64,000 bases of DNA from contig MU270017.1 in the NCBI GenBank assembly GCA_021432635.1, forward strand, positions 1,531,520 to 1,595,519. The letters run 5' to 3'. Under the pieces are notes generated by a model. The model was not told the DNA's origin and searched no databases. It saw only the letters and a program-made list of their open reading frames with translations. The translations under genes and the position numbers were made by a program. This DNA comes from Thozetella sp. PMI_491. Taxonomy: Eukaryota > Ascomycota > Sordariomycetes > Chaetosphaeriales > Chaetosphaeriaceae. This document shows, in pieces, positions 10,401 through 58,186 of this stretch. Within the stretch, counting starts at the first letter, position 1. Every line of letters starts with the position of its first letter.

Positions 10401-11292
10401 AAGGGTATCTACCAATCGACTGCCTCCCGGAAACCCCTCGCAATTCTACTACAAGCCCTCCCCGAAAGAGCCTGTCAGTCAGGTACATGGCTACCGAGGA
10501 GGGGCGTGGCCACGGACAAGAGACCTTATCAGATCTTTTGCGCCTCGTATGCCCGACGCCCTGGCTCTTTTATGGCGTGCGGCCGCTGCCTATCACCAGG
10601 CTTCCAGCCTCGGACTTGTGTACCAACCCGTGTGCCACCTACTCCACGCGGTTTGCACTTGTTATCTGGAGGCGTGGTAGAAACAAGGTTCTTACTGCGG
10701 TAACGATGCCGATGTGTGAACCGGGGGCGTTGGTCCTCAGCAATTATCCCTATCCAGCCTTCCCTTCCCAGGGCATGTGGACTGCACCAGCCAACCGCCG
10801 CCCCTTGCCACAGTCGCGCTGGGCCTCAATAGTCGTGTGGGTTCCGTCCTTCTAGAACTCACGCTACGAGAGCCTTCCATGCGTGGAAGGGGGATCGACT
10901 GTGCGGATATCCCAATGGGATGCCCGAGGGGTAGTATTCTCGACAAGGACCATGCATACTAGGTTGGCTATCAGAGTAGTATGGGCAGAGCCCGGTGCGG
11001 TGAGGTGGATCGAGAGACCGAGGCGGTGGGGCCTGTATCCTGGGCTCAACGGGTCAGGTAGGATGAGGCAACAGCTGAGGCGACGCCTTGCCCTAGGGCG
11101 GCGGTAATATAAGATACCTCCCGATCCCCACGATCTCGTCACAGATAGTTTGTCTGCCAGGCCAGCCCTCGTTCACACAAGTCTGACAGCCCCCGCCTCT
11201 AAGCTGAAGCAGACATCACTCCTTAGTCTCTGCCCATACACTCTTTTGCCTCTCCGCAGCGCTGCCCCTCGGCTGAGCAGGACCTGATCATC
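7451..11292. other. long gene-poor stretch
   Basis: This 3.8-kb region has no frame that I can assign or join convincingly by splicing. The largest plus frame (about 8733-9332) opens with GTG, overlaps an equally long antisense frame and has no family features. GC content rises towards 9.6-11 kb. A G10 tract lies near 9671. The last ~200 bases are the GH71 promoter and leader. Confidence 0.5.
11108..11113 (+). promoter_or_regulatory. TATA-like element of the GH71 gene
   Basis: TATAAG lies about 180 bases upstream of the ATG at 11293, followed by a pyrimidine-rich leader typical of expressed fungal genes. Assigned by position and motif only. Confidence 0.4.
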
Positions 11293-12927
11293 ATGAAGCT
11301 CAACTACCTCTACGGTCTGCTGACCGCCGCCCTGGGCATCTCCCAAGCCCAGGCCAAGGCCGTCTTTGCCCACTTCATGGTCGGCAACGTGCCCGCCTTC
11401 AGCGTCGCCGACTGGGAGGCCGACATCGCGCTCGCCCAGGCCGCTTCGATCGATGCCTTCGTCCTCAACGTCGCCGCCACCGACTCGAACAACGCGGCCT
11501 CCGTCGACAAGGCCTTCCAGGCCGCCACCAACAAGAACTTCAAGCTGTTCTTCTCGTTCGACTACGCCGCCCAGGGCCCCTGGGACCAGCAGGCCGTCAT
11601 CAACCTGATCAACGGCTACGCCAGCAAGACGCCCTACTGGAAGGAGGGCGGCAAGCCCTTCGTGTCCACCTTCGAGGGAGGCGCTCAGTGGACCCAATGG
11701 AGCGCCATCAAGGCCGCCACCAACTGCTTTTTGGTCCCCGAGTGGAGCAGCCTCGGCGCACAAGGTGCTGTCAACACCGGCGTTGTCGACGGCCTGTTCA
11801 GCTGGGACGCCTGGCCGACCGGCGCCACGGACATGGGCACCTCGGGGGACTCGACCTACCGCCAGGCATTGGGCACCTCCCGACCCTACATGATGCCCGT
11901 CTCGCCGTGGTTCTACACCAACCTGCCCACCTGGACCAAGAACTGGCTGTGGCGCGGCGATGATCTCTGGTACGACCGCTGGCAGCAGGTGCTCACGCTC
12001 CAGCCCGAGTACGTCGAGATCATCAGCTGGAACGACTTCGGCGAGTCGCACTACATCGGCCCTCTCCACGACAGCGAGTTCGATCTCTTCACCTACGGCG
12101 GCGCCCCCTACAACTACGTCAAGGACATGCCCCACGACGGCTGGCGCCAGTTCCTTCCCTACATCATCAGCCAGTACAAGACCGGCGCGGCTACCGTCAG
12201 CGCCGAGGGCCTGACGGCGTGGTACCGCCGCAACCCGGCCACGGCCTGCGCGACCGGCGGCACCACCGGCAACTCGGGCCCCAACGGCCAGTCGACCACC
12301 ACGCCGTACAGCATCGTCCAGGACAAGGTCTTCTTCTCGGCGCTCCTCGCCTCGAGCGGCGCCACCGTCACTGTATCCATCGGCGGCAACTCGCAGGCCG
12401 CCTCGTGGGAGAACACTCCCTCCGGCGGCGCCGGCATCTACCACGGCAGCGCTCCCTTCAACGGCCGCACTGGCGACGTCGTCGTCACTGTCTCCCGCGG
12501 AACCACTCAGGTCGCCAAGCTCACGGGCGCTTCCATCACCACCACATGCACCAACAACATCGAGAACTGGAACGCCTGGGTCGGCAGCACCGGCGGTACC
12601 TCGTCGGGCGGCGGCAGCGGCGGTAGCGGCGGCAGCGGCGGCAGCGGCAGCGGCAGCTACTGTGTCGCTGGTAAGGAGAAGTCCGACCCCAACATGTCCG
12701 GTCTCTGCGGCTACACTTGCGCGTACAACTACTGCCCGTCCGATGTCTGCACCTGCACTCAGTACTCCACCACGGCGAACCCCGAGCCAGCCATCACCGG
12801 CGGGAAGGGATACCCCCTCGTCGGCCTGGGATGCGCCTACGCCGGTCTGTGCTCTTACAGCTGTGACCACACGTACTGCCCTTCGACGGCCTGCTCGTCG
12901 GACCCCGCCGGCGCTGTTGGCTGCTAG
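11293..12927 (+). CDS. secreted GH71 alpha-1,3-glucanase (mutanase) with CBM24-like modules
   Basis: Intronless, 544 aa. Residues 1-21 are a signal peptide, followed by KAVFAHFMVGNVPAF, the conserved GH71 start. The GH71 barrel continues to about residue 320 (IDAFVLNVA, WNDFGESHYIGP). A beta-rich domain follows at about 345-430. A Gly/Ser linker (GGSGGSGGS) leads to two Cys-rich segments, GLCGYTCAYNYCPSDVC and GLCSYSCDHTYCPSTAC. These match the CBM24 alpha-1,3-glucan-binding pattern of fungal mutanases. The enzyme should hydrolyse alpha-1,3-glucan outside the cell, for wall remodelling or mycoparasitism. Codon use is strongly GC-biased, so a very long open frame also appears on the opposite strand; that is a shadow. 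Confidence 0.93.
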   Translation: MKLNYLYGLLTAALGISQAQAKAVFAHFMVGNVPAFSVADWEADIALAQAASIDAFVLNVAATDSNNAASVDKAFQAATNKNFKLFFSFDYAAQGPWDQQAVINLINGYASKTPYWKEGGKPFVSTFEGGAQWTQWSAIKAATNCFLVPEWSSLGAQGAVNTGVVDGLFSWDAWPTGATDMGTSGDSTYRQALGTSRPYMMPVSPWFYTNLPTWTKNWLWRGDDLWYDRWQQVLTLQPEYVEIISWNDFGESHYIGPLHDSEFDLFTYGGAPYNYVKDMPHDGWRQFLPYIISQYKTGAATVSAEGLTAWYRRNPATACATGGTTGNSGPNGQSTTTPYSIVQDKVFFSALLASSGATVTVSIGGNSQAASWENTPSGGAGIYHGSAPFNGRTGDVVVTVSRGTTQVAKLTGASITTTCTNNIENWNAWVGSTGGTSSGGGSGGSGGSGGSGSGSYCVAGKEKSDPNMSGLCGYTCAYNYCPSDVCTCTQYSTTANPEPAITGGKGYPLVGLGCAYAGLCSYSCDHTYCPSTACSSDPAGAVGC

Positions 12928-19410: not shown

Positions 19411-19884
19411 ATGGACGCCAACGGCCAGCCTGACGCCGGCTCGGCGATTGAGCCCAACAGGCCGGTGCCTCCAAGTACTGCATCGACCGCAGACAGGCCT
19501 GCAATGGACACAGCTGATGGGGGGATATCTGCTGGCCCGGCCGAGCATACTGAGATCCCGCGGCCGACCGCCATGCCGTTTCGAGAATCTCAAATCTGCA
19601 TAGCAGTGGATTGCTCCGGGAGTACATACGGCACGGTGCTCGAAATGGAACGGAAGGCGATCCGAAGCATTTGCTCCCTTGTCCCTAGGAGTCTGCTCTC
19701 TAATGTGGCAATTCTTCCGTGGAATTCCGAGGCCCGCCGACCGATTGCCGTGCACCTGATTGACCAGATATACTCGGATGGCGGGACAAACCCGAATGTG
19801 GTTCTCGAGGACCCAGACTGTCGCCTGCTTCTGCAGCAGTGTTCCTTCTGGTTCTTGATAACCGACGGCATCATCGATACCGTA

Positions 19885-19959
19885 ACGTAGTCCATAGGTG
19901 GGCCGATCATATATGTGGGCCGATCACTCATTATCACATACTAAATCGTGATTTTCTTA
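19885..19959 (+). repeat. left terminal inverted repeat of the MITE
   Basis: 75 bp, complementary to 20247-20321 with a single mismatch. It contains the doubled GGGCCGATCA motif. Confidence 0.92.
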
Positions 19960-20246
19960 ACAGCCTTTCACATGTAAATATAAAGGAATCTCTTTATAAA
20001 TAAAGTTATAATCTATCCCAAGGTTCTTTATATATATATAATTTTCTTAAGAGTTTTAAAAAACTTTATTATATAATAATTAAGGAGAAAAGAAGGAGTA
20101 GAGACATATGTCTCTAATTTTCTATTATTATATTTAAGAAAATTTTAGAAAATATTTTTAAAACAAGTCTTTGATTTTATATTCTTATTAGAAAAGTAAT
20201 ACAAAGTTTTATGTTTTACTATAAAGAATTGGCGGCTTAAAGTTGG

Positions 20247-20321
20247 TAAGAAAATCACGATTTAATATGTGATAATGAGTGATCGGCCCACATATATGAT
20301 CGGCCCACCTATGGACTACGT
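20247..20321 (-). repeat. right terminal inverted repeat of the MITE
   Basis: Reverse complement of 19885-19959 apart from one T/C difference. It is followed directly by the second TA and then by the resumed VWA reading frame. Confidence 0.92.
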
Positions 20322-22439
20322 TATTGATTCACCGCTTCGCCAAGAGCCTCGCCGATTATGGTATGCATGGCAAAGGAGCCGTGGTGGCCGTCTTTGGCGA
20401 GAGGCTTGCCAACCCTAGTGAGTGCAACATCACCGTCGGCTTGTCGGTATTCGCCGCCAGCCCTCACGTCGCGTTCCTATATACGGACGTAGAATTCAAC
20501 AAGACATTTGTTCTCCAGACGAAGGGCTGTTTTACGGCGCTTCTGCCGCCCGGCACTCCCAATCCGCACTTTGATTATGACACGAAGTGGGACGACTTGC
20601 CGCAAACTTCGTACGAAAACCTCATGCGGGTCTCAGTACCGCCGCCCGTCAAGCTGGATTCCAGCGAGATTGCTCTCGATGGGAACACAAAGTTAAACAT
20701 GGACGCGCTCTTGCAGGACCTGCCCGTCTCTGAGGAGATCATGGGTACAATCCTGGACAACGAAGAAAACCTAAAGACCCTCGCGCTTACGGCTAAGACG
20801 AGGGGACAGCAAGAAAAGCTCCATGCTTGGCTGGATAAGATTGATCGGAAACTTGATGAGCCCGCACCTCAGCAGCCTTTGGCCGCCCCTAAACCTTCCG
20901 CACTTTTAGCAAAAGTGGCATCGGACCTCGCCTCCGAACACCCTCCATACATACCAACAGTTACCTACACCTCCTATCAGCCGTTAGATAAAATAGTCCT
21001 GAATCGGCGGCTCTCAAGCGACCATGCGCGGCGTCTCTCGGGCAAATCGATAACCTACGCCAGGGATAGCCTGGGGTGTGTACACCCTAAGGGCGCAGCG
21101 AAAACCAAGGCAACAAGGCCGCCTGCAAAGGTCCAGCCGGGCTTTACTACGCCCTCAAATCCCAAACATTCGTTTGAAGGTGCCTGTATGATATGCGATG
21201 ACCAAGCGGTTCTCCATTTCCTCCTGGTTGATCCTCCGACTACAGAGGCGACGAAGGATCTACCAGCGCCTGGGAGCCACTCCAAGCTCATCTTCCCTCT
21301 AACTATGGGCAATTATCCCGAGACGGATGTGGTATCAACACTATTATCCTGCAACAGCTGTGTCGACAGTTTCCTACGCGGTTTTAACACTCGCAACGGA
21401 GAGAAGGCGGTCTCTGCCGTGCCTCTAGTCTCCCTCACCCAGAGCAGAGTCGCCTGGCTTAAGGCTGTCAGCCTCGCGCTGAAACACCGATTCGACCACT
21501 CTGATTTGCCCCAAATCCTCCTGGCAATTCTCTATACCAAATTAGAGCGCCTGCTAGTCCCCCATTCTGGGGGATACGGCTTAATCTTCCGTCAGGCCCT
21601 GGAGTGGGAGTGCAGTATGCTGCAGTCCGAAATCACGCTGGAAAACTGTATGAATCCGCCCACGCAATCACTCGGCACCGGTGTCATGCATGAAGCCGTC
21701 GTACGGAGCTTCCGCGATTCTCTCAATGCGAAGCACCCCGAGCTCCCGCTCCTGTTGCAGTATCCGCTCGACGGGTTCATTGTTGCCAATGCCATCCTCT
21801 CCAACTCGCGCCACAAGACACTTCTAAGTGGCGAGAAGCGCAAGACAGTCGTGTTACTGCGCTTCTTATACCACATTACTGAAACGTACTGTGCCTTCGA
21901 GGCCGCCAGCAACCCCGCCTCGTTGCATGGCGCCAAGGCATTACTGCTTTCGGTAGACAACCCGCAGGGGCCGCGCTCGCTGTTCAAGTGGGACTCCCTT
22001 CGCAAGCTGTCGGTCAGAAACATACACGAGGTGATGGGCTTCCTGGGCAGCATGATCACACAATTCGAGTTCCGCATGGCCATCTCGGCAAAGGACCTGG
22101 CCGAGACGCCATTCCTCAGCGCTGAGAGTCTCCGAGACTTTCGGAGACTGGGCGTCCTGTTCAGTGGGGTGGAGAACCAGGCCGGGCAAGCTATCTCGGT
22201 ATTTGTCCACCACCTGTTGAGGAGTGATGTGGTGGACAGCACGCCGCAGGACCGATTCCGGAAACTCAGAGACCTTCCCACCGTAGCGCAGGCGCTGGGT
22301 GACCCGGAAGGTCTGAGCATGCGGATGGTGCAGACCCTGATTAAGGATCTCCCAAAGCTGAACGGATGGCCAGTGGCGGGTTCTAATACTTTCAATGAAC
22401 CAAAAGCTACATAGAACATAGCCTTTTTCATAACACCTG

Positions 22440-32457: not shown

Positions 32458-33443
32458 GTCTGTTGGAAGAGGCCGCCTGCGCGAGCGTGAAAGAAGCTGG
32501 CCACTAACACAGGCGGCACGGCCCAAAGGCGTCTACGGTCTATATATTCCAAGGATCGGCTGCCGGATGGGAAGCCAAGACGTCAACAGCAAAGGCAAGA
32601 ACGAGGTTAAGACCGATGTACATTGGGCCCCCAGTTCTGTTGCGAGATAAGCACAAGGATCTAAGCTGTCGATCTCCTGCGTTGTGGGGCGAGGTACCAA
32701 GTGCCGGGGATTAGACCGGGTCGCGCTGAGCGGATTGGTCGCCCTCCGCCGATTGCCGATCGACAGGACCGGCGGCGGGGGGCCAGTTACACCCGGCGTC
32801 CGCGCCAAGACGGCCGCCCGCATGGTTGCCCGCAATAGGGGGTGTGTTTCGCCGTGCCAAGAGCGTTGCGATCTTCTTCCTGCTTGGGAAACCGGTCGTG
32901 TGAGCACTGAGGAGCCCCGGACCGACGTAGGCAATTGGTCGCGTGCTTCGGTAAGTCAACATGAGGATAGGCTCTGGCTAACGGGTGCCTGCGAGTGGCA
33001 TCGCCGCGCCGGGGTGGAGCGCACGAGCTTCTCAAACACTCCGACTTGCACCTACCGGCCCTGGTTAGCTGCGCGCTTGACGGCTATCTGTCGTCTGGCA
33101 GGGTGGCAGCGACCTGACCAACTTCCGCTGATGACGTGCGAGGGGATGACCAGGAAGCAAGCAAGCTCGGTGGGCTGCGATGCGGGTTTAAGAGGCCAAG
33201 CACTCTCGTCTGCCGGCAGTTCTGCTACCCCTTGCTACGCACGCTTCCTTCCTTACAATACTTTCTTTCCAGACTACACAAACTGTGCGCCGTTCGCTGT
33301 CGCTTCTGGTCAAGCCGCAAGCCGGGGCACGTTCTCTCGCTATACTATACTCTCCTTTCCGCCAGCCGCCGTGCCAGGCCAGACCAGATAGGCAACCGTC
33401 CCTACTTTCTACATTCCTGCCTTGTCCGCTCGTTTCTATAATC
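32458..33443. other. intergenic stretch between divergent genes
   Basis: Holds both promoters. The frame of the downstream Stealth gene remains open from 33285 but lacks an ATG before 33444. CT-rich leader sequence precedes 33444. Other frames show no features. Confidence 0.5.
32541..32547 (-). promoter_or_regulatory. TATA-like element of the acyltransferase gene
   Basis: TATATA about 85 bases upstream of the ATG at 32457 on the minus strand. Motif and position only. Confidence 0.35.
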
Positions 33444-35519
33444 ATGCTGTCCCCAAGGCTCAAGACGCTTCCGCGCATCCAAATACAGCGACCGACGATC
33501 CAGCGTCCTACCTCACCCATTGGGCGGAGAACCCTAACGGCGCGTCCCATGCAGAAGGCGGCACTGCTGCTCTGCTTCCTATCTCTGGTGTGGCTCGTCT
33601 CCGCCGGCCCCCTCGGGGCCTCAGACCTCGTAGGGCGGACCGGCTCCGCCGCCTTCGATTTTGCTCATGCTACCCTCGCCCCTGGTGAGCAGAGAGCCTG
33701 GGTCGGCGGCGGCGCTGCCGTACCGCGGCCCCCAACTCGCGCGGGAGACAGTCCACCGCAGGGCGCGGACGCTCCCAGGGAGGGCCGGCCGCGCGGGAAG
33801 TCTGGCCGCAAGTCGCTCTACAAGGCGCAGCCGGACGCGATCCGCATCTCGTTCGAGGAGGCGGTGCGCGACGTTGAGCTCGCCGGTTGGGAGGAGGAGT
33901 GGTTCTCTTCGGGCGTCTACGACGTGGAAAAGTACGGCGCCCTCGCCGAGCCCAAGCTAGATTTCGTGTACAACTGGGTCAACGGCTCGGACGAGGCTTT
34001 CCAGGAGGCCCGGCGCCCGTACGAGCTGCAGTCTCCGCTAAACGACGCGAAGGGGGAGTGGCTCGCGAGGCACGCCGTCAACCGCTACCGAGACTGGGAT
34101 GAGCTCCGGTACTCGCTGCGCAGCCTAGACGCGTACGCCCGTGGGATTGTAAATCGTGTTCAGGTGCTAGTTAATTCAGTGGCGGATAGCACTGGAGCGC
34201 TGGTGCCGCAGCGGCCGGCGTGGCTCCGGCACACCGATGAGGCTGACAACCTCGTGCAGGTGCTTGGCCAGGAGTCCTTTTTCGGAGAAGACGAGCAGCA
34301 GTGCCTCCCGACATTTAACTCACTCGCCATTGAGGCCCAGCTGCACCGCACGCCGTCGGAGCGGGATCAACTCGTTGCGCTGTCGGACGACATGTTCCTC
34401 GGGGCGCCACACGTCGCCGCTGACTTCTACTCGCCGTTGTTCGGGCCGGCCATGGCGTTCAAGCCGGATCACTACAACGTCCAGAGCCTGGGCGGCAAAG
34501 ACAAGTGGCCGTCGTTCGGCGAGAAGCCGTTCCTCTACTATACCTCGCACCTACTGAACCGCCGCTTCGGATCTCGCAACCGTCACGTACAGGCTCATTT
34601 CGGCCACTCCGTCTCCCGTTCGGTCATGAAGGAGGCGCTCGCTTCATTCCCGCAGCCTTACGCCCAGGGCTCGTGCGAGAGGTTCCGCGGCGAGTCGAAC
34701 TTCCAGATCTACCCATGGTACGCGAGCTTTCACTACACCATCGAGCGCTTCCGAGAGGTGCTGCTGTGGTCATTCATCGTTGCGCGGTCCGACGGGGACG
34801 GAGACGGCTATCTCGACTGGGCCGAGCGCCAGGCCATCCTCGACGCTGCGGAGCCGGGCTGGCGGGCACTAGGAGGCCAAGACTCATCAATGCCGGCTCG
34901 CCAGAGCCGGGTGCGCGACCGTATGTACTACCGGCTCCCCGACGAGCTGCGCAGGGCGGGCCTCCAGCCCCCGGAAGCGAACGTGAACGTCCTCTGGACG
35001 TCCCTGGATGGCCCGGCGACGATCCGCGGCGTTAAGTGCCACCACTTTAGCGTCGACGAGTGCTTCGGCGAGTCGTTCGGCTCACCGCTGTCGGACGCGG
35101 CCGCGCACGACCCTGGCTTTACCGCGTCCAACGTCTTCGCACGGTTGGCTGTGCAGCGCCCTGAGTGCGGGGACTGTCTGCTCAAGTTCCTGCTTGAGGG
35201 GGCACCGCGGGGCCTAGAGCCGCTGCTCCCACCGGCGGTGACGCGGGCGGCGGACCGTACTATCGTCGTCAAGGCACTCAAGAAGTACCAGCACACCATC
35301 GTCGGCACCGACGCCATGAAGTTCGTCATGGTCAAGGACGCTGAGCAGGCCCAGGCTGAGCTGCTGGAGCGCGCGGTCCTGCGCGGGGAGAAGTTTGGAC
35401 AGTGGTGCCTCAACGACGACGTGATGGACGAGGCTGAAGAATCCCAAGTGCGCGCGGTCATCAGCGAGGTTTTCCAGAAACTGTGGCCGAAGCGCGGACG
35501 GTGGGAGCGAGAGGACTGA
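33444..35519 (+). CDS. Stealth-type sugar-phosphate transferase (GNPTAB/capsular phosphotransferase-like)
   Basis: Intronless, 691 aa from the ATG at 33444. A single N-terminal membrane anchor (LLLCFLSLVWLVSA, about residue 38-51) gives a type II Golgi-like topology. Stealth regions appear in order: CR1 LDFVYNWVNGSDEAF (about 172), CR2 RYRDWDELRYSLRSLDAYA (about 213), CR3 LPTFNSLAIEAQLHR with LVALSDDMFLG (286-320), and FQIYPWYASFHYTIERFREV. An EF-hand-like loop DGDGDGYLDWAE lies at about 450. The family transfers sugar-1-phosphate to glycans: bacterial capsules, or lysosomal-enzyme tagging by animal GNPTAB. The fungal acceptor is unknown; I infer a mannan or glycoprotein glycan. The last codons lie inside a 14-base tandem repeat. 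Confidence 0.87.
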   Translation: MLSPRLKTLPRIQIQRPTIQRPTSPIGRRTLTARPMQKAALLLCFLSLVWLVSAGPLGASDLVGRTGSAAFDFAHATLAPGEQRAWVGGGAAVPRPPTRAGDSPPQGADAPREGRPRGKSGRKSLYKAQPDAIRISFEEAVRDVELAGWEEEWFSSGVYDVEKYGALAEPKLDFVYNWVNGSDEAFQEARRPYELQSPLNDAKGEWLARHAVNRYRDWDELRYSLRSLDAYARGIVNRVQVLVNSVADSTGALVPQRPAWLRHTDEADNLVQVLGQESFFGEDEQQCLPTFNSLAIEAQLHRTPSERDQLVALSDDMFLGAPHVAADFYSPLFGPAMAFKPDHYNVQSLGGKDKWPSFGEKPFLYYTSHLLNRRFGSRNRHVQAHFGHSVSRSVMKEALASFPQPYAQGSCERFRGESNFQIYPWYASFHYTIERFREVLLWSFIVARSDGDGDGYLDWAERQAILDAAEPGWRALGGQDSSMPARQSRVRDRMYYRLPDELRRAGLQPPEANVNVLWTSLDGPATIRGVKCHHFSVDECFGESFGSPLSDAAAHDPGFTASNVFARLAVQRPECGDCLLKFLLEGAPRGLEPLLPPAVTRAADRTIVVKALKKYQHTIVGTDAMKFVMVKDAEQAQAELLERAVLRGEKFGQWCLNDDVMDEAEESQVRAVISEVFQKLWPKRGRWERED

Positions 35520-35603
35520 AGCGAGAGGACTGAAGCGAGAGGACTGAAGCGAGAGGACTGAAGCGAGAGGACTGAAGCGAGAGGACTGAAGCGAGAGGAC
35601 TGA
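35507..35603 (+). repeat. 14-bp tandem repeat (7 copies) across a stop codon
   Basis: GCGAGAGGACTGAA is repeated seven times, the last copy missing its final base. The first copy contains the TGA stop of the Stealth gene. Because 14 is not a multiple of three, each copy shifts phase, but translation ends in the first copy. Confidence 0.95.
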
Positions 35604-46428: not shown

Positions 46429-46702
46429 GCTGGTGGCGGAGGACTGAGGCGTCGGAGGCGCATCCCTCATCGGACGGTGGGCTATTGGGCGCATCACGCG
46501 CGGCTGCATGCTCTCCGAGAGGGAAGAGCAGAAATTCAGCTTTGGCATACTCTATCGGCTTGCTAGGCATAGAAGAAGTAATTTCGCAACATTCAAATAA
46601 ACAGGCGACGTGCATACCCATCCGGTTGCCCAGCCCATGCTCTAAGCAGAAAGCAGGCTAGAAAGATTTAAAACGCGAATGCCCTAGTAAGATGACCCGC
46701 CC
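46429..46702. other. 3' flank of the methyltransferase gene
   Basis: No feature seen. It leads directly into the inverted-repeat element. Confidence 0.4.
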
Positions 46703-47238
46703 GCTGTGCTTTCAAAACGGTAAGACAGCAGTGAGTGGGTCCAGGTTTGAGGGACCACCACCACCACCGTCACCACCATCACCAGGCACAAGATAAAATT
46801 TGTTGGAAAACATTTTATCGCTTTATAAACGCGCACGTATCATTATAATTACAATAGCTACAGGTCTTTAATCTCCTTATTAACAGGCATCGAGTTATAC
46901 TATATATATCTCTCTCTCTTTTTCCTAGCGTGTGTACGCTATATAGATCAGGTAATCCTTATGGATTGCACAGCAGCGTACGGTTAGTATGGATCGCGCG
47001 GTCCGTATAGCTAACGTGGACCAATTGGCCCTCGAGGATCGTATGGCCAGCGCCGTCAGTATGGCTCGTGCGGATCGTATAGCAAACATAGCCCGTCTAT
47101 GTAGGCGTTGTTACGTTGTTCTATAGCTACAGATATCTATCTCGAGATCTCTCGACGCGTTTTCTTCGCGTTGGTGGTGGTGGTGGTGGTGGTCCCTTAA
47201 AATCTGGACCCGCTGTCTTATCGTTTGGAAAGCACAGC
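46703..47238. mobile_element. probable degenerate inverted-repeat element (MITE-like)
   Basis: The left end GCTGTGCTTTCAAAACGG followed by TAAGACAGC, GGGTCCAG, GAGGGACCACCACCACC is mirrored at the right by GGTGGTGGTCCCTTAA, CTGGACCC, GCTGTCTTA and GGAAAGCACAGC. The inverted arms cover about 75 bases with several mismatches and a small indel. The interior is AT-rich with no open frame and contains loosely repeated GGATCGTATAGC/GGATCGTATGGCC motifs (46990-47090). I could not find a clear target duplication, so the exact ends and superfamily are uncertain. Confidence 0.65.
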
Positions 47239-48289
47239 GCTCAGGGGGGCTTGTGAAACATGAAATATTTTGCAGTGTGCACTCACTAGGGCTTGCGAGA
47301 AAATGTACCGGTCGAATATGTAATGATGCTGCGTGACGCGAGCCCACGGCCCCATCACGCCATCATCCGAGGCCCAATACTGTCGAGCTTTCAGCCTCGA
47401 GGGAGGAGATAAAAAGCCATCGTTGGTTGCATACGAATCAGGTACTAGGCGACCCGGAGACTCTTTCGGCCACCTTCAATCCCTGGTGGCAGCAAAATGG
47501 CTGCGAATATGGTGTCATTTCGGGATGCATTGACGAGCTGTTTGCTGCGCATAGATCTTGCGTGGACACCACCACCCGGTGCATGGGGTCGCCGCGCTGA
47601 GTATTTTCCTTATCGGTGCTTTCCAATGCCATCTATCAAACACCTAGTATACTCGCATTTTCCATGTATACAGGCGGCGCATGGAAATACTCATGTTTCC
47701 TATACCAGGCGAGAAGCCGCAAAAATGGCGGCTTCATAGGTGCGCCGCAGCAACCGACAGCACACACTGCATCCCGGGGTCGCACTGTTTGCCCAGATAG
47801 GGGCAACCTTTAGAAAATCTTTCTCGCATCGCCGGGATTGCCATGTTGGTGCGGGCCCGGCATCACGGATCTCGGTGTCGGCACCCACTCTCCCGGATGA
47901 GGTGCTCGTAAAGGGGGAGATCATTGGTACCACACAGCCCCCCCACGTCGATAGTAAGGGAGGGCGGTGGTCTATAGTTCCAGAACCACAGAACAGGGCA
48001 TAGTTTCCGGAATGATGGTACATTTTGAGTAGGTTCTCTTCGTCACGCAATCCCCCCCCCTCATGTCACCTCGCACCCTGCATCCGCCCACGCTTCGCCC
48101 AGTGGTCCGAGGCGGCCAGCTACCCGCGCCCCCGGGCCGTGGGTCATGTATAATATCCCACCATGTTCTCTTCCGTGTCTTGCTTTCAGAGGATCGACGT
48201 TGCATCCACAGCGAGGAACTGCGATCAAGCTTCTTCACTCCTACCACCGTCCGCTCCCACACCGTAGCCAGCGTGGCCGTACTATCACA
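47239..48289. other. intergenic, promoter of the MFS gene
   Basis: No confident gene. A C10 tract lies near 48051-48060 and CT-rich leader sequence precedes the ATG at 48290. Confidence 0.45.
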
Positions 48290-56815: not shown

Positions 56816-58186
56816 AGGCTCTTAGGCCATGTTTGGTCCCGGCGTGCATCCATGCGCCGGGTTTCTACTCCTTTCTTTTTTTTCTTTCTAGATGGCACAG
56901 AGTTGGCCTAGTTTGCATCGGCATCGCGCGTCATTTTGCATTGCACACATCGGCGTTTTATACCCAACGCATTTTGGGGGCTTCATCTGCATAGGTATCA
57001 TACATGCTGGGCTCTACGGAGCCACAGTAGCATTAGGCATTCGCATCCTCGACTTAATCACTGTTTACTGGAAGGGAGAGAACACTGGAGGGATTTACGC
57101 AGGGTGGACGATGAGAGATGAGAGATGAGAGACGAGAGACGAGAGACGAGAGACGAGAGACGAGAGACGAGAGACGAGAGACGAGAGACGAGAGACGAGA
57201 GACGAGAGACGAGATGAATGATACAGCGGTGGACGGAGCGGTGCTAGCGAGATGGGACGGACGAGAGGGCGTCGCGGCAGTTGGGTCTTCCATTTCTAGA
57301 CGGATAGCCTGCGAGACAAACTATAACATGCCCAGCGATAGTGAATACGAAGCCTTTCTTGACTCTCACTTGCTCTCCCGCTTCCCGCTTGGCAGACTCT
57401 TCGTGGACACACCCGCTAGGATGCTGCCTAGGCATGAACTCGGCGTTTCTCGCCGACGGTATGATGTTCCAGACTCTGGCTAACCCGATTGATGCTCCGC
57501 ATTGCTCCCAGAGGGAGCCAGCTCTGGAGCCCCCTATACCGAGTCATGCTTGCAACGCACAATGCAGGACGCTAGCGTCTGGCCGGTGCGTACTGGGCAT
57601 CAACGGTCGATCCTCTAACCGCACGACTTGATCGAATCCGTACAAAGAAGTTACTACTTTGAGCACACTACGCAAAAGGGGCTACGCAGCAGTGGCGGGC
57701 GGGCTAGAGGCTGGCGTCGAGCTCTTGTGGGCCCGACACTGCGTCTAGTCCATGGTGGCGGAAGGCCCGAGGAGGTGGACACACAACGGCGAGAGCACGG
57801 GGTTTCGGCCACAAAAAAGCAACAGAAGATGACCGGCGATTTTGTGTGTGCATTTTGCATCCAGCGCCGAAGCGGCGGCGCGCGAAGGACGTAATGGAAA
57901 TGATTCCAAAAGATATGAACCGCCAGACCCAGACCAGGCCAGCTGCTCACGCCAGCCAGGCCCTCGGAATCTCTAGCTGCGCCCGTACTGACGCGCGAGA
58001 GAAGTTGGGTATCACGTACACCCATGCCCAACCCAGACACCACTACCTTATAACCAGACACCCAAGTGCACTCATACCTCATGATCCGAGGGAGGGGGAC
58101 CGTCCCAAGTGGCCGGAAGCCTTGCTCCCACATGTCAATGCCAATTTTTTTCTCCATCCCGTATGGCCGCGAAAACGCTTGATCGG
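56816..58186. other. intergenic between convergent genes
   Basis: Contains the 7-bp tandem array at 57111-57214. Repetitive frames over it (RRETRDE) are artefacts. The rest shows no gene. Confidence 0.5.
57111..57214 (+). repeat. 7-bp minisatellite (ATGAGAG)3(ACGAGAG)11
   Basis: Fourteen full tandem heptamers plus a partial one. The first three have T where the other eleven have C. The plus strand is mostly purine. Confidence 0.95.

What the first reader, a model, noticed from the sequence alone, without database searches (positions are those of the whole stretch)
19411..22414. MITE insertion splits a VWA gene; the original frame is still intact
Seen: a 437-bp element with 75-bp inverted repeats and TA duplications sits in codon 158 of the VWA gene. 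Removing it plus one TA rejoins the frame exactly, and the 2.1-kb downstream half has no other stop or frameshift. Inference: the insertion is recent, or some nuclei/strains keep an intact allele. If the element can excise precisely, the gene could switch back on.
Basis: partly seen in the sequence, partly recalled or inferred. Interest (0 to 1): 0.75.

Follow-up and report, generated by a model that had tools for sequence, protein, structure and literature searches.

The report
Mobile DNA insert splitting fungal gene
A short, non-coding jumping-DNA element of a type well known in fungi has landed in the middle of a fungal gene and cut it in two, probably recently because the rest of the gene has not yet decayed; this looks ordinary, and nothing found here shows that the gene can switch itself back on.

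Summary
A 437-bp element (19885-20321) flanked by TA, with 75-bp inverted repeats matching at 74 of 75 positions, interrupts an open frame after codon 158; the 696 codons beyond it are open in the continuing phase. Each terminal repeat carries two direct repeats 17 bp apart, the layout reported for the fungal transposons Aft1, Tan1 and Trem (PMC2836289, passages). Its longest open stretch is 38 codons: a non-autonomous MITE. The host looks like a filamentous ascomycete of unknown genus. 'VWA' rests on a motif only: Pfam and NCBIfam match neither half. Best explanation: transposase supplied in trans inserted the element, giving a loss-of-function allele; if unselected, 854 unbroken codons imply roughly 1-2% divergence at most. 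The switch idea is weak: mariner-type MITEs usually leave footprints on excision (PMC4561436, passages), which usually shift the frame. Insertion creates a donor-like GTAACG with an in-frame acceptor 21 bp beyond the element, but 30 of 303 TA sites in coding stretches here would do likewise. Ordinary; low interest.

The parts
19411..19884 (+). 5' half of the split gene, 158 codons, VWA-like MIDAS motif (DCSGS at residue 67, TDG at residue 151)
   Evidence: open frame; motif; no Pfam match
19883..19884 (.). left TA of the target-site duplication
19885..20321 (.). 437-bp non-autonomous element (MITE), 28% GC, longest open stretch 38 codons
19885..19959 (+). left 75-bp terminal inverted repeat
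   Evidence: 74 of 75 positions match the right one
20247..20321 (-). right 75-bp terminal inverted repeat
19894..19926 (+). two 16-nt direct repeats, starts 17 bp apart, in the left terminal repeat
20280..20312 (-). the same pair of direct repeats in the right terminal repeat
19888..19890 (+). first in-frame stop, inside the element
20322..20323 (.). right TA of the target-site duplication
20324..22414 (+). 3' half of the split gene, 696 codons and stop
   Evidence: open frame in the continuing phase
19882..20344 (+). hypothetical 463-nt intron: donor-like GTAACG at 19882, acceptor-like CAAG ending at 20344
   Evidence: chance control gives no support

Best explanation
A non-autonomous Tc1/mariner-superfamily MITE of the Fot1/pogo (Aft1/Tan1/Trem) type was inserted by cut-and-paste at a TA in codon 158 of a gene of a filamentous ascomycete, duplicating the TA. 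Its first bases bring an in-frame stop, so translation ends after 159 codons, inside a probable VWA-like domain, and the 696 codons downstream are cut off. Shown: element anatomy, TA on both sides, premature stop, continuing phase, both halves open. Inferred: the transposase came in trans from an autonomous relative elsewhere in the genome, the allele is a loss of function, and the insertion is young in this haplotype.
For: TA on both sides, 75-bp inverted repeats at 74 of 75, 28% GC against 57% in the window; two direct repeats 17 bp apart in each terminal repeat, the layout described for Trem, Aft1 and Tan1 (PMC2836289, passages); longest open stretch in the element 38 codons; both frames open up to the element and in phase; in 7 of the 8 20-codon blocks next to the element the gene frame is the best of the three forward frames.
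Against: No second copy of the element in the window, no host genome and no uninterrupted orthologue were available, so neither mobility nor the former gene is proved. Terminal repeats of 75 bp are longer than the 42-49 bp listed for Trem elements (PMC2836289). The codon measure is coarse: the 5' half scores -0.044 in its frame against -0.09 in one antisense frame, 31 of 2000 shuffles reach it, two of three untrained sense frames score below zero and an antisense frame of the GH71 gene scores -0.032. No family match for either half.
Confidence: 0.87

Rival explanations
1. The element is removed from the RNA as an intron: insertion next to a G makes GTAACG, the inverted repeats fold into a hairpin that brings the ends together, and an acceptor 21 bp downstream gives an in-frame protein that lacks eight residues.
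For: 26 of 208 GT-AG pairs keep the frame without a stop, among them GTAACG 19882 to CAAG 20344, 463 nt. The transcript would fold strongly (-196.3 kcal/mol, z -19.6, 0 of 100 shuffles as low). Introners with terminal inverted repeats that co-opt exon splice sites are described (PMC9860276, passages).
Against: 30 of 303 TA sites in eight coding stretches of the window would offer the same donor and an in-frame acceptor within 30 nt. No CTRAY branch site lies within 60 nt before the acceptor, only one weaker TTGAT. Most of the donor would be paired in the hairpin. The same paper calls ascomycete introners an outlier in signs of DNA transposition. 463 nt is long for such fungi (recalled).
Confidence: 0.05
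2. The insertion is a reversible switch: the element excises precisely in some nuclei and the gene is active there.
For: The frames are still intact and in phase. Excision of an impala element at about 1 in 100000 is reported in Aspergillus nidulans (PMC4832277, passages; that insert lay in a promoter).
Against: Mariner/Stowaway-type MITEs usually leave the TSD and some element bases (PMC4561436; PMC2874221); two or three such bases plus the extra TA add four or five, which shifts this frame. The element encodes no transposase, and no copy with an empty site was seen because no reads or host genome are at hand.
Confidence: 0.04
3. The two halves are, or have become, two separate genes, the second starting at an ATG inside the 3' half.
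For: No orthologue is available; the 3' half has an in-frame ATG at its codon 14, window 20363.
Against: Both frames run into the element from both sides and are in phase, and the codon use next to the element favours the gene frame in 7 of 8 blocks.
Confidence: 0.04

Closest known systems
Fot1/pogo-type fungal transposons Trem, Aft1, Tan1 (PMC2836289, passages seen)
   Same: TA on both sides; terminal inverted repeats that contain two direct repeats 17 bp apart
   Different: Those are 1.8-2.3 kb (Trem) with a transposase and have terminal repeats of 42-49 bp; here 437 bp, no transposase, 75 bp. The letters of the ends were not compared.
MITEs of Tc1-Mariner families in Sclerotinia sclerotiorum (PMC4188875, passages seen)
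   Same: Short non-autonomous derivatives of Tc1-Mariner elements in an ascomycete
   Different: 481-813 nt; their positions in genes and their sequences were not compared
Vader of Aspergillus niger (recalled; no paper on it appeared in the listings)
   Same: As recalled: a TA-flanked non-autonomous Fot1-family element of about the same length, ends beginning ACGTA
   Different: As recalled: terminal repeats of about 44 bp. Nothing of this was tested
Fot1-like insertion allele pacX18 in Aspergillus nidulans (PMC4832277, passages seen)
   Same: A Fot1-like element inserted in a gene and giving a mutant allele
   Different: Identical to a resident transposon with its transposase gene, found under laboratory selection

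Membership tests
MITE of the Tc1/mariner superfamily | TA target-site duplication | tested here: met
   TA at 19883-19884 and 20322-20323
MITE of the Tc1/mariner superfamily | terminal inverted repeats | tested here: met
   75 bp, 74 of 75
MITE of the Tc1/mariner superfamily | short (under about 500 bp) and without transposase | tested here: met
   437 bp, longest open stretch 38 codons in six frames
MITE of the Tc1/mariner superfamily | several copies in the genome | not testable with these tools
   one copy in the window; no host genome held
Fot1/pogo type (Aft1/Tan1/Trem) | two 17-bp direct repeats in each terminal repeat | tested here: met
   starts 17 bp apart, 15 of 16 positions alike; criterion from PMC2836289 passages
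Fot1/pogo type (Aft1/Tan1/Trem) | an autonomous element with the same ends and a pogo-type transposase | not testable with these tools
   no host genome held; no such element seen in the window by its ends
VWA domain protein | MIDAS motif DxSxS, later T, later TDG after a hydrophobic strand | tested here: met
   present; 2 of 100000 shuffles; pattern written after seeing the sequence, from recalled knowledge
VWA domain protein | match to a VWA sequence profile | tested here: not met
   Pfam and NCBIfam gave no match at E up to 10 for either half; each half would hold only part of the domain. I therefore write VWA-like
VWA domain protein | VWA fold | tested here: inconclusive
   single-sequence model of the 5' half, mean pLDDT 63.1; Foldseek best E 0.47, 0 of 141 matches at 0.001 or below; model of the 3' half, mean pLDDT 36.3, not used
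Introner (transposon-derived intron) | removed from the mRNA by splicing | not testable with these tools
   no RNA data; in-frame splice-like pair exists but 30 of 303 chance sites do too

The most novel reading that the evidence does not exclude
The MITE is tolerated because it behaves as a new intron: its end completes a donor at the target G, its hairpin brings the borders together and an exon site serves as acceptor, so that a nearly full-length protein is made. That would be the birth of an intron from a TA-flanked Fot1-type element, seen soon after insertion.
Probability: 0.05. Interest if true: 0.55.

Novelty: new member of a known kind. Interest (0 to 1): 0.2.

Why it matters
It is a clean case of a fungal gene interrupted by a MITE with every border readable, and so a usable marker for presence/absence surveys. 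If the element were spliced out, it would be a rare case of intron birth from a TA-type DNA transposon in an ascomycete. As it stands it adds one case to a common class.

Tried and rejected
Other element borders: a shorter element starting at the TA inside ACGTA was considered and rejected, because complementarity runs out to the outer TAs and the phase fits the 437-bp reading (sequence).

RIP as the cause of the low GC: the interior (19968-20238) has TpA/ApT 1.16 and (CpA+TpG)/(ApC+GpT) 0.69, the whole element 1.00 and 0.92. These lie in or near ranges used for RIP (recalled), but AT-rich MITE interiors would look alike, and the one mismatch of the terminal repeats is a C before T, not the usual CpA. 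Left open.

Relatives: 3' half in viral contigs, no pattern match; 5' half in viral contigs, 3 stretches with a pattern, none a relative; 3' half in prokaryote genomes, 7 stretches, none a relative; element ends in viral contigs and in prokaryote genomes, no match. These collections are not fungal, so the absence says little.

Weak hints not relied on: PHROG 5298, cobalamin biosynthesis protein, E 0.15 over residues 59-93 (CobT is recalled to hold a VWA-like part). Foldseek: one of the 50 rows shown is titled a VWA domain (rank 24, E 1.8); a few more are proteins recalled to hold VWA-like domains; the top row is a clostripain. Rfam: no match in the window. tRNAs: none.

Literature: five pieces of the element's end as text: 107 papers held at least one, 20 listed; those 20 held only the 9-letter piece, and none by its title was about a fungal transposon; 87 were not seen. 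Vader: 88 papers, 20 listed; 6 papers, all listed; by title or abstract start none was about the Aspergillus element; the one opened had it as an author's name. Searches were also literature searches; of the papers cited I saw passages only, and for PMC4561436 its abstract too.

Full report
What the window is. Of 149 mechanical frames of 100 aa or more I gave 20 long ones to Pfam; 11 of the 20 matched a family at E 0.001 or below (6 of 10, 5 of 10), among them glycosyl hydrolase family 71, a HET heterokaryon-incompatibility domain, DUF3176, Stealth regions and a protein kinase. That this set points to a filamentous ascomycete is recalled knowledge. The genus is unknown, and no genome is held.

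The element. Between 19885 and 20321 lies a 437-bp element with TA on both sides. Its ends are 75-bp inverted repeats, alike at 74 of 75 positions. It is 28% GC in a 57% GC window, and its longest open stretch in six frames is 38 codons. Its first 18 bases occur in the window only at its two ends (2 matches, 0.04 expected). Each terminal repeat holds two direct repeats that start 17 bp apart. A study of Paracoccidioides transposons (PMC2836289; [quoted passage not shown] On this layout I place the element with the Fot1/pogo-type DNA transposons, as a non-autonomous MITE. The terminal repeats are longer than the 42-49 bp given there. I could not compare letters with a named family; Vader of Aspergillus niger is recalled as a close case, but no paper on it appeared in the listings.

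The gene. Codon 158 of the frame that starts at 19411 ends with the left TA. The element adds one codon and then a stop (19888-19890). From 20324, 696 codons are open to a stop at 22412-22414 in the phase that continues codon 158; the other two forward frames there have 26 and 28 stops. The phase match alone is a one-in-three event. What favours one split gene is that both frames are open right up to the element. Codon use agrees but is a coarse measure, trained on six frames of this window (3088 codons): in 7 of 8 20-codon blocks nearest the element the gene frame is the best of the three forward frames. Against it: the whole 5' half scores -0.044 in its frame and -0.09 in an antisense frame that is also free of stops; 31 of 2000 shuffles reach the 5' score, against 0 of 2000 for the 3' half; two of three untrained sense frames score below zero; an antisense frame of the GH71 gene scores -0.032.

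Is it a VWA gene? The 5' half has a hydrophobic strand with DCSGS (residue 67), a later T and TDG (residue 151) after another hydrophobic strand, the layout of a MIDAS site (recalled); a pattern written after seeing it appears in 2 of 100000 shuffles. The single-sequence model orders strands and helices in a compatible way, but with mean pLDDT 63.1, and Foldseek gave nothing significant (best E 0.47 of 141 matches). Pfam and NCBIfam gave no match for either half at E up to 10, PHROGs one at 0.15, PDB sequences nothing below 0.6. The insertion would cut such a domain, so each half holds only a part. I call it VWA-like and no more.

How old? If nothing selects on the halves, 854 codons stay free of stops and frameshifts with probability 0.5 up to 0.2-0.5% divergence and 0.05 at 0.9-2.0%, over three transition weights and three assumed indel ratios. 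So the insertion is young, or the pieces are still under selection. The one mismatch of the terminal repeats is no clock, because the source copy may have carried it.

Can it switch back? Mariner/Stowaway-type MITEs usually leave footprints on excision, unlike Tourist/Harbinger types (PMC4561436, abstract and passages); [quoted passage not shown] These passages are not about Fot1-type elements in particular. Two or three leftover bases plus the extra TA add four or five bases, which shifts this frame. A clean return would need repair from an intact copy or a rare event. Excision as such does occur in fungi: about 1 in 100000 for impala in Aspergillus nidulans, from a promoter (PMC4832277, passages). 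Nothing here shows an intact copy or a transposase.

Could it be spliced? Of 208 GT-AG pairs around the element 26 keep the frame without a stop; one uses GTAACG, completed by the insertion at 19882, and CAAG ending at 20344, 21 bp beyond the element, a 463-nt intron that would cost eight residues. The RNA would fold into a strong hairpin (z -19.6), which would also pair most of the donor. But 30 of 303 TA sites in eight coding stretches of this window offer the same donor and an in-frame acceptor, and no CTRAY branch site lies in the 60 nt before the acceptor, only a weaker TTGAT. Introners made from DNA transposons are described, with ascomycetes as an outlier in DNA-transposition signs (PMC9860276, passages). 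I give this 5%.

Verdict. A real insertion of a known kind of element, probably recent, with loss of function as the expected consequence.

Noticed in passing
window 46702-47239: A second, imperfect inverted-repeat structure (arms of 28 and 30 nt, 93% and 90% complementary); by eye the complementarity seems to continue outward to CCCTAGT/ACTAGGG. Possibly an older DNA element of another kind.
   Followed up: partly
window 35506-35603 and 57113-57214: Tandem arrays: a 14-bp unit in 7.0 perfect copies, and a 7-bp unit in 14.6 copies at 98% matches.
   Followed up: no
window 11173-12870 (-): A 565-codon open frame antisense to the GH71 frame (11293-12927 +), without a Pfam match at E 0.001; probably a by-product of codon bias.
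   Followed up: no
window 21185-21361 (+): Two CxxC pairs (CMIC at residue 288, CNSC at residue 343 of the 3' half), spaced as in some zinc-binding domains, in a stretch with no family match.
   Followed up: no
window 33285-35519 (+): A 744-codon frame with all four Stealth conserved regions (CR1, CR2 and CR4 above the Pfam cut-off, CR3 just below) in what looks like a fungal genome.
   Followed up: no
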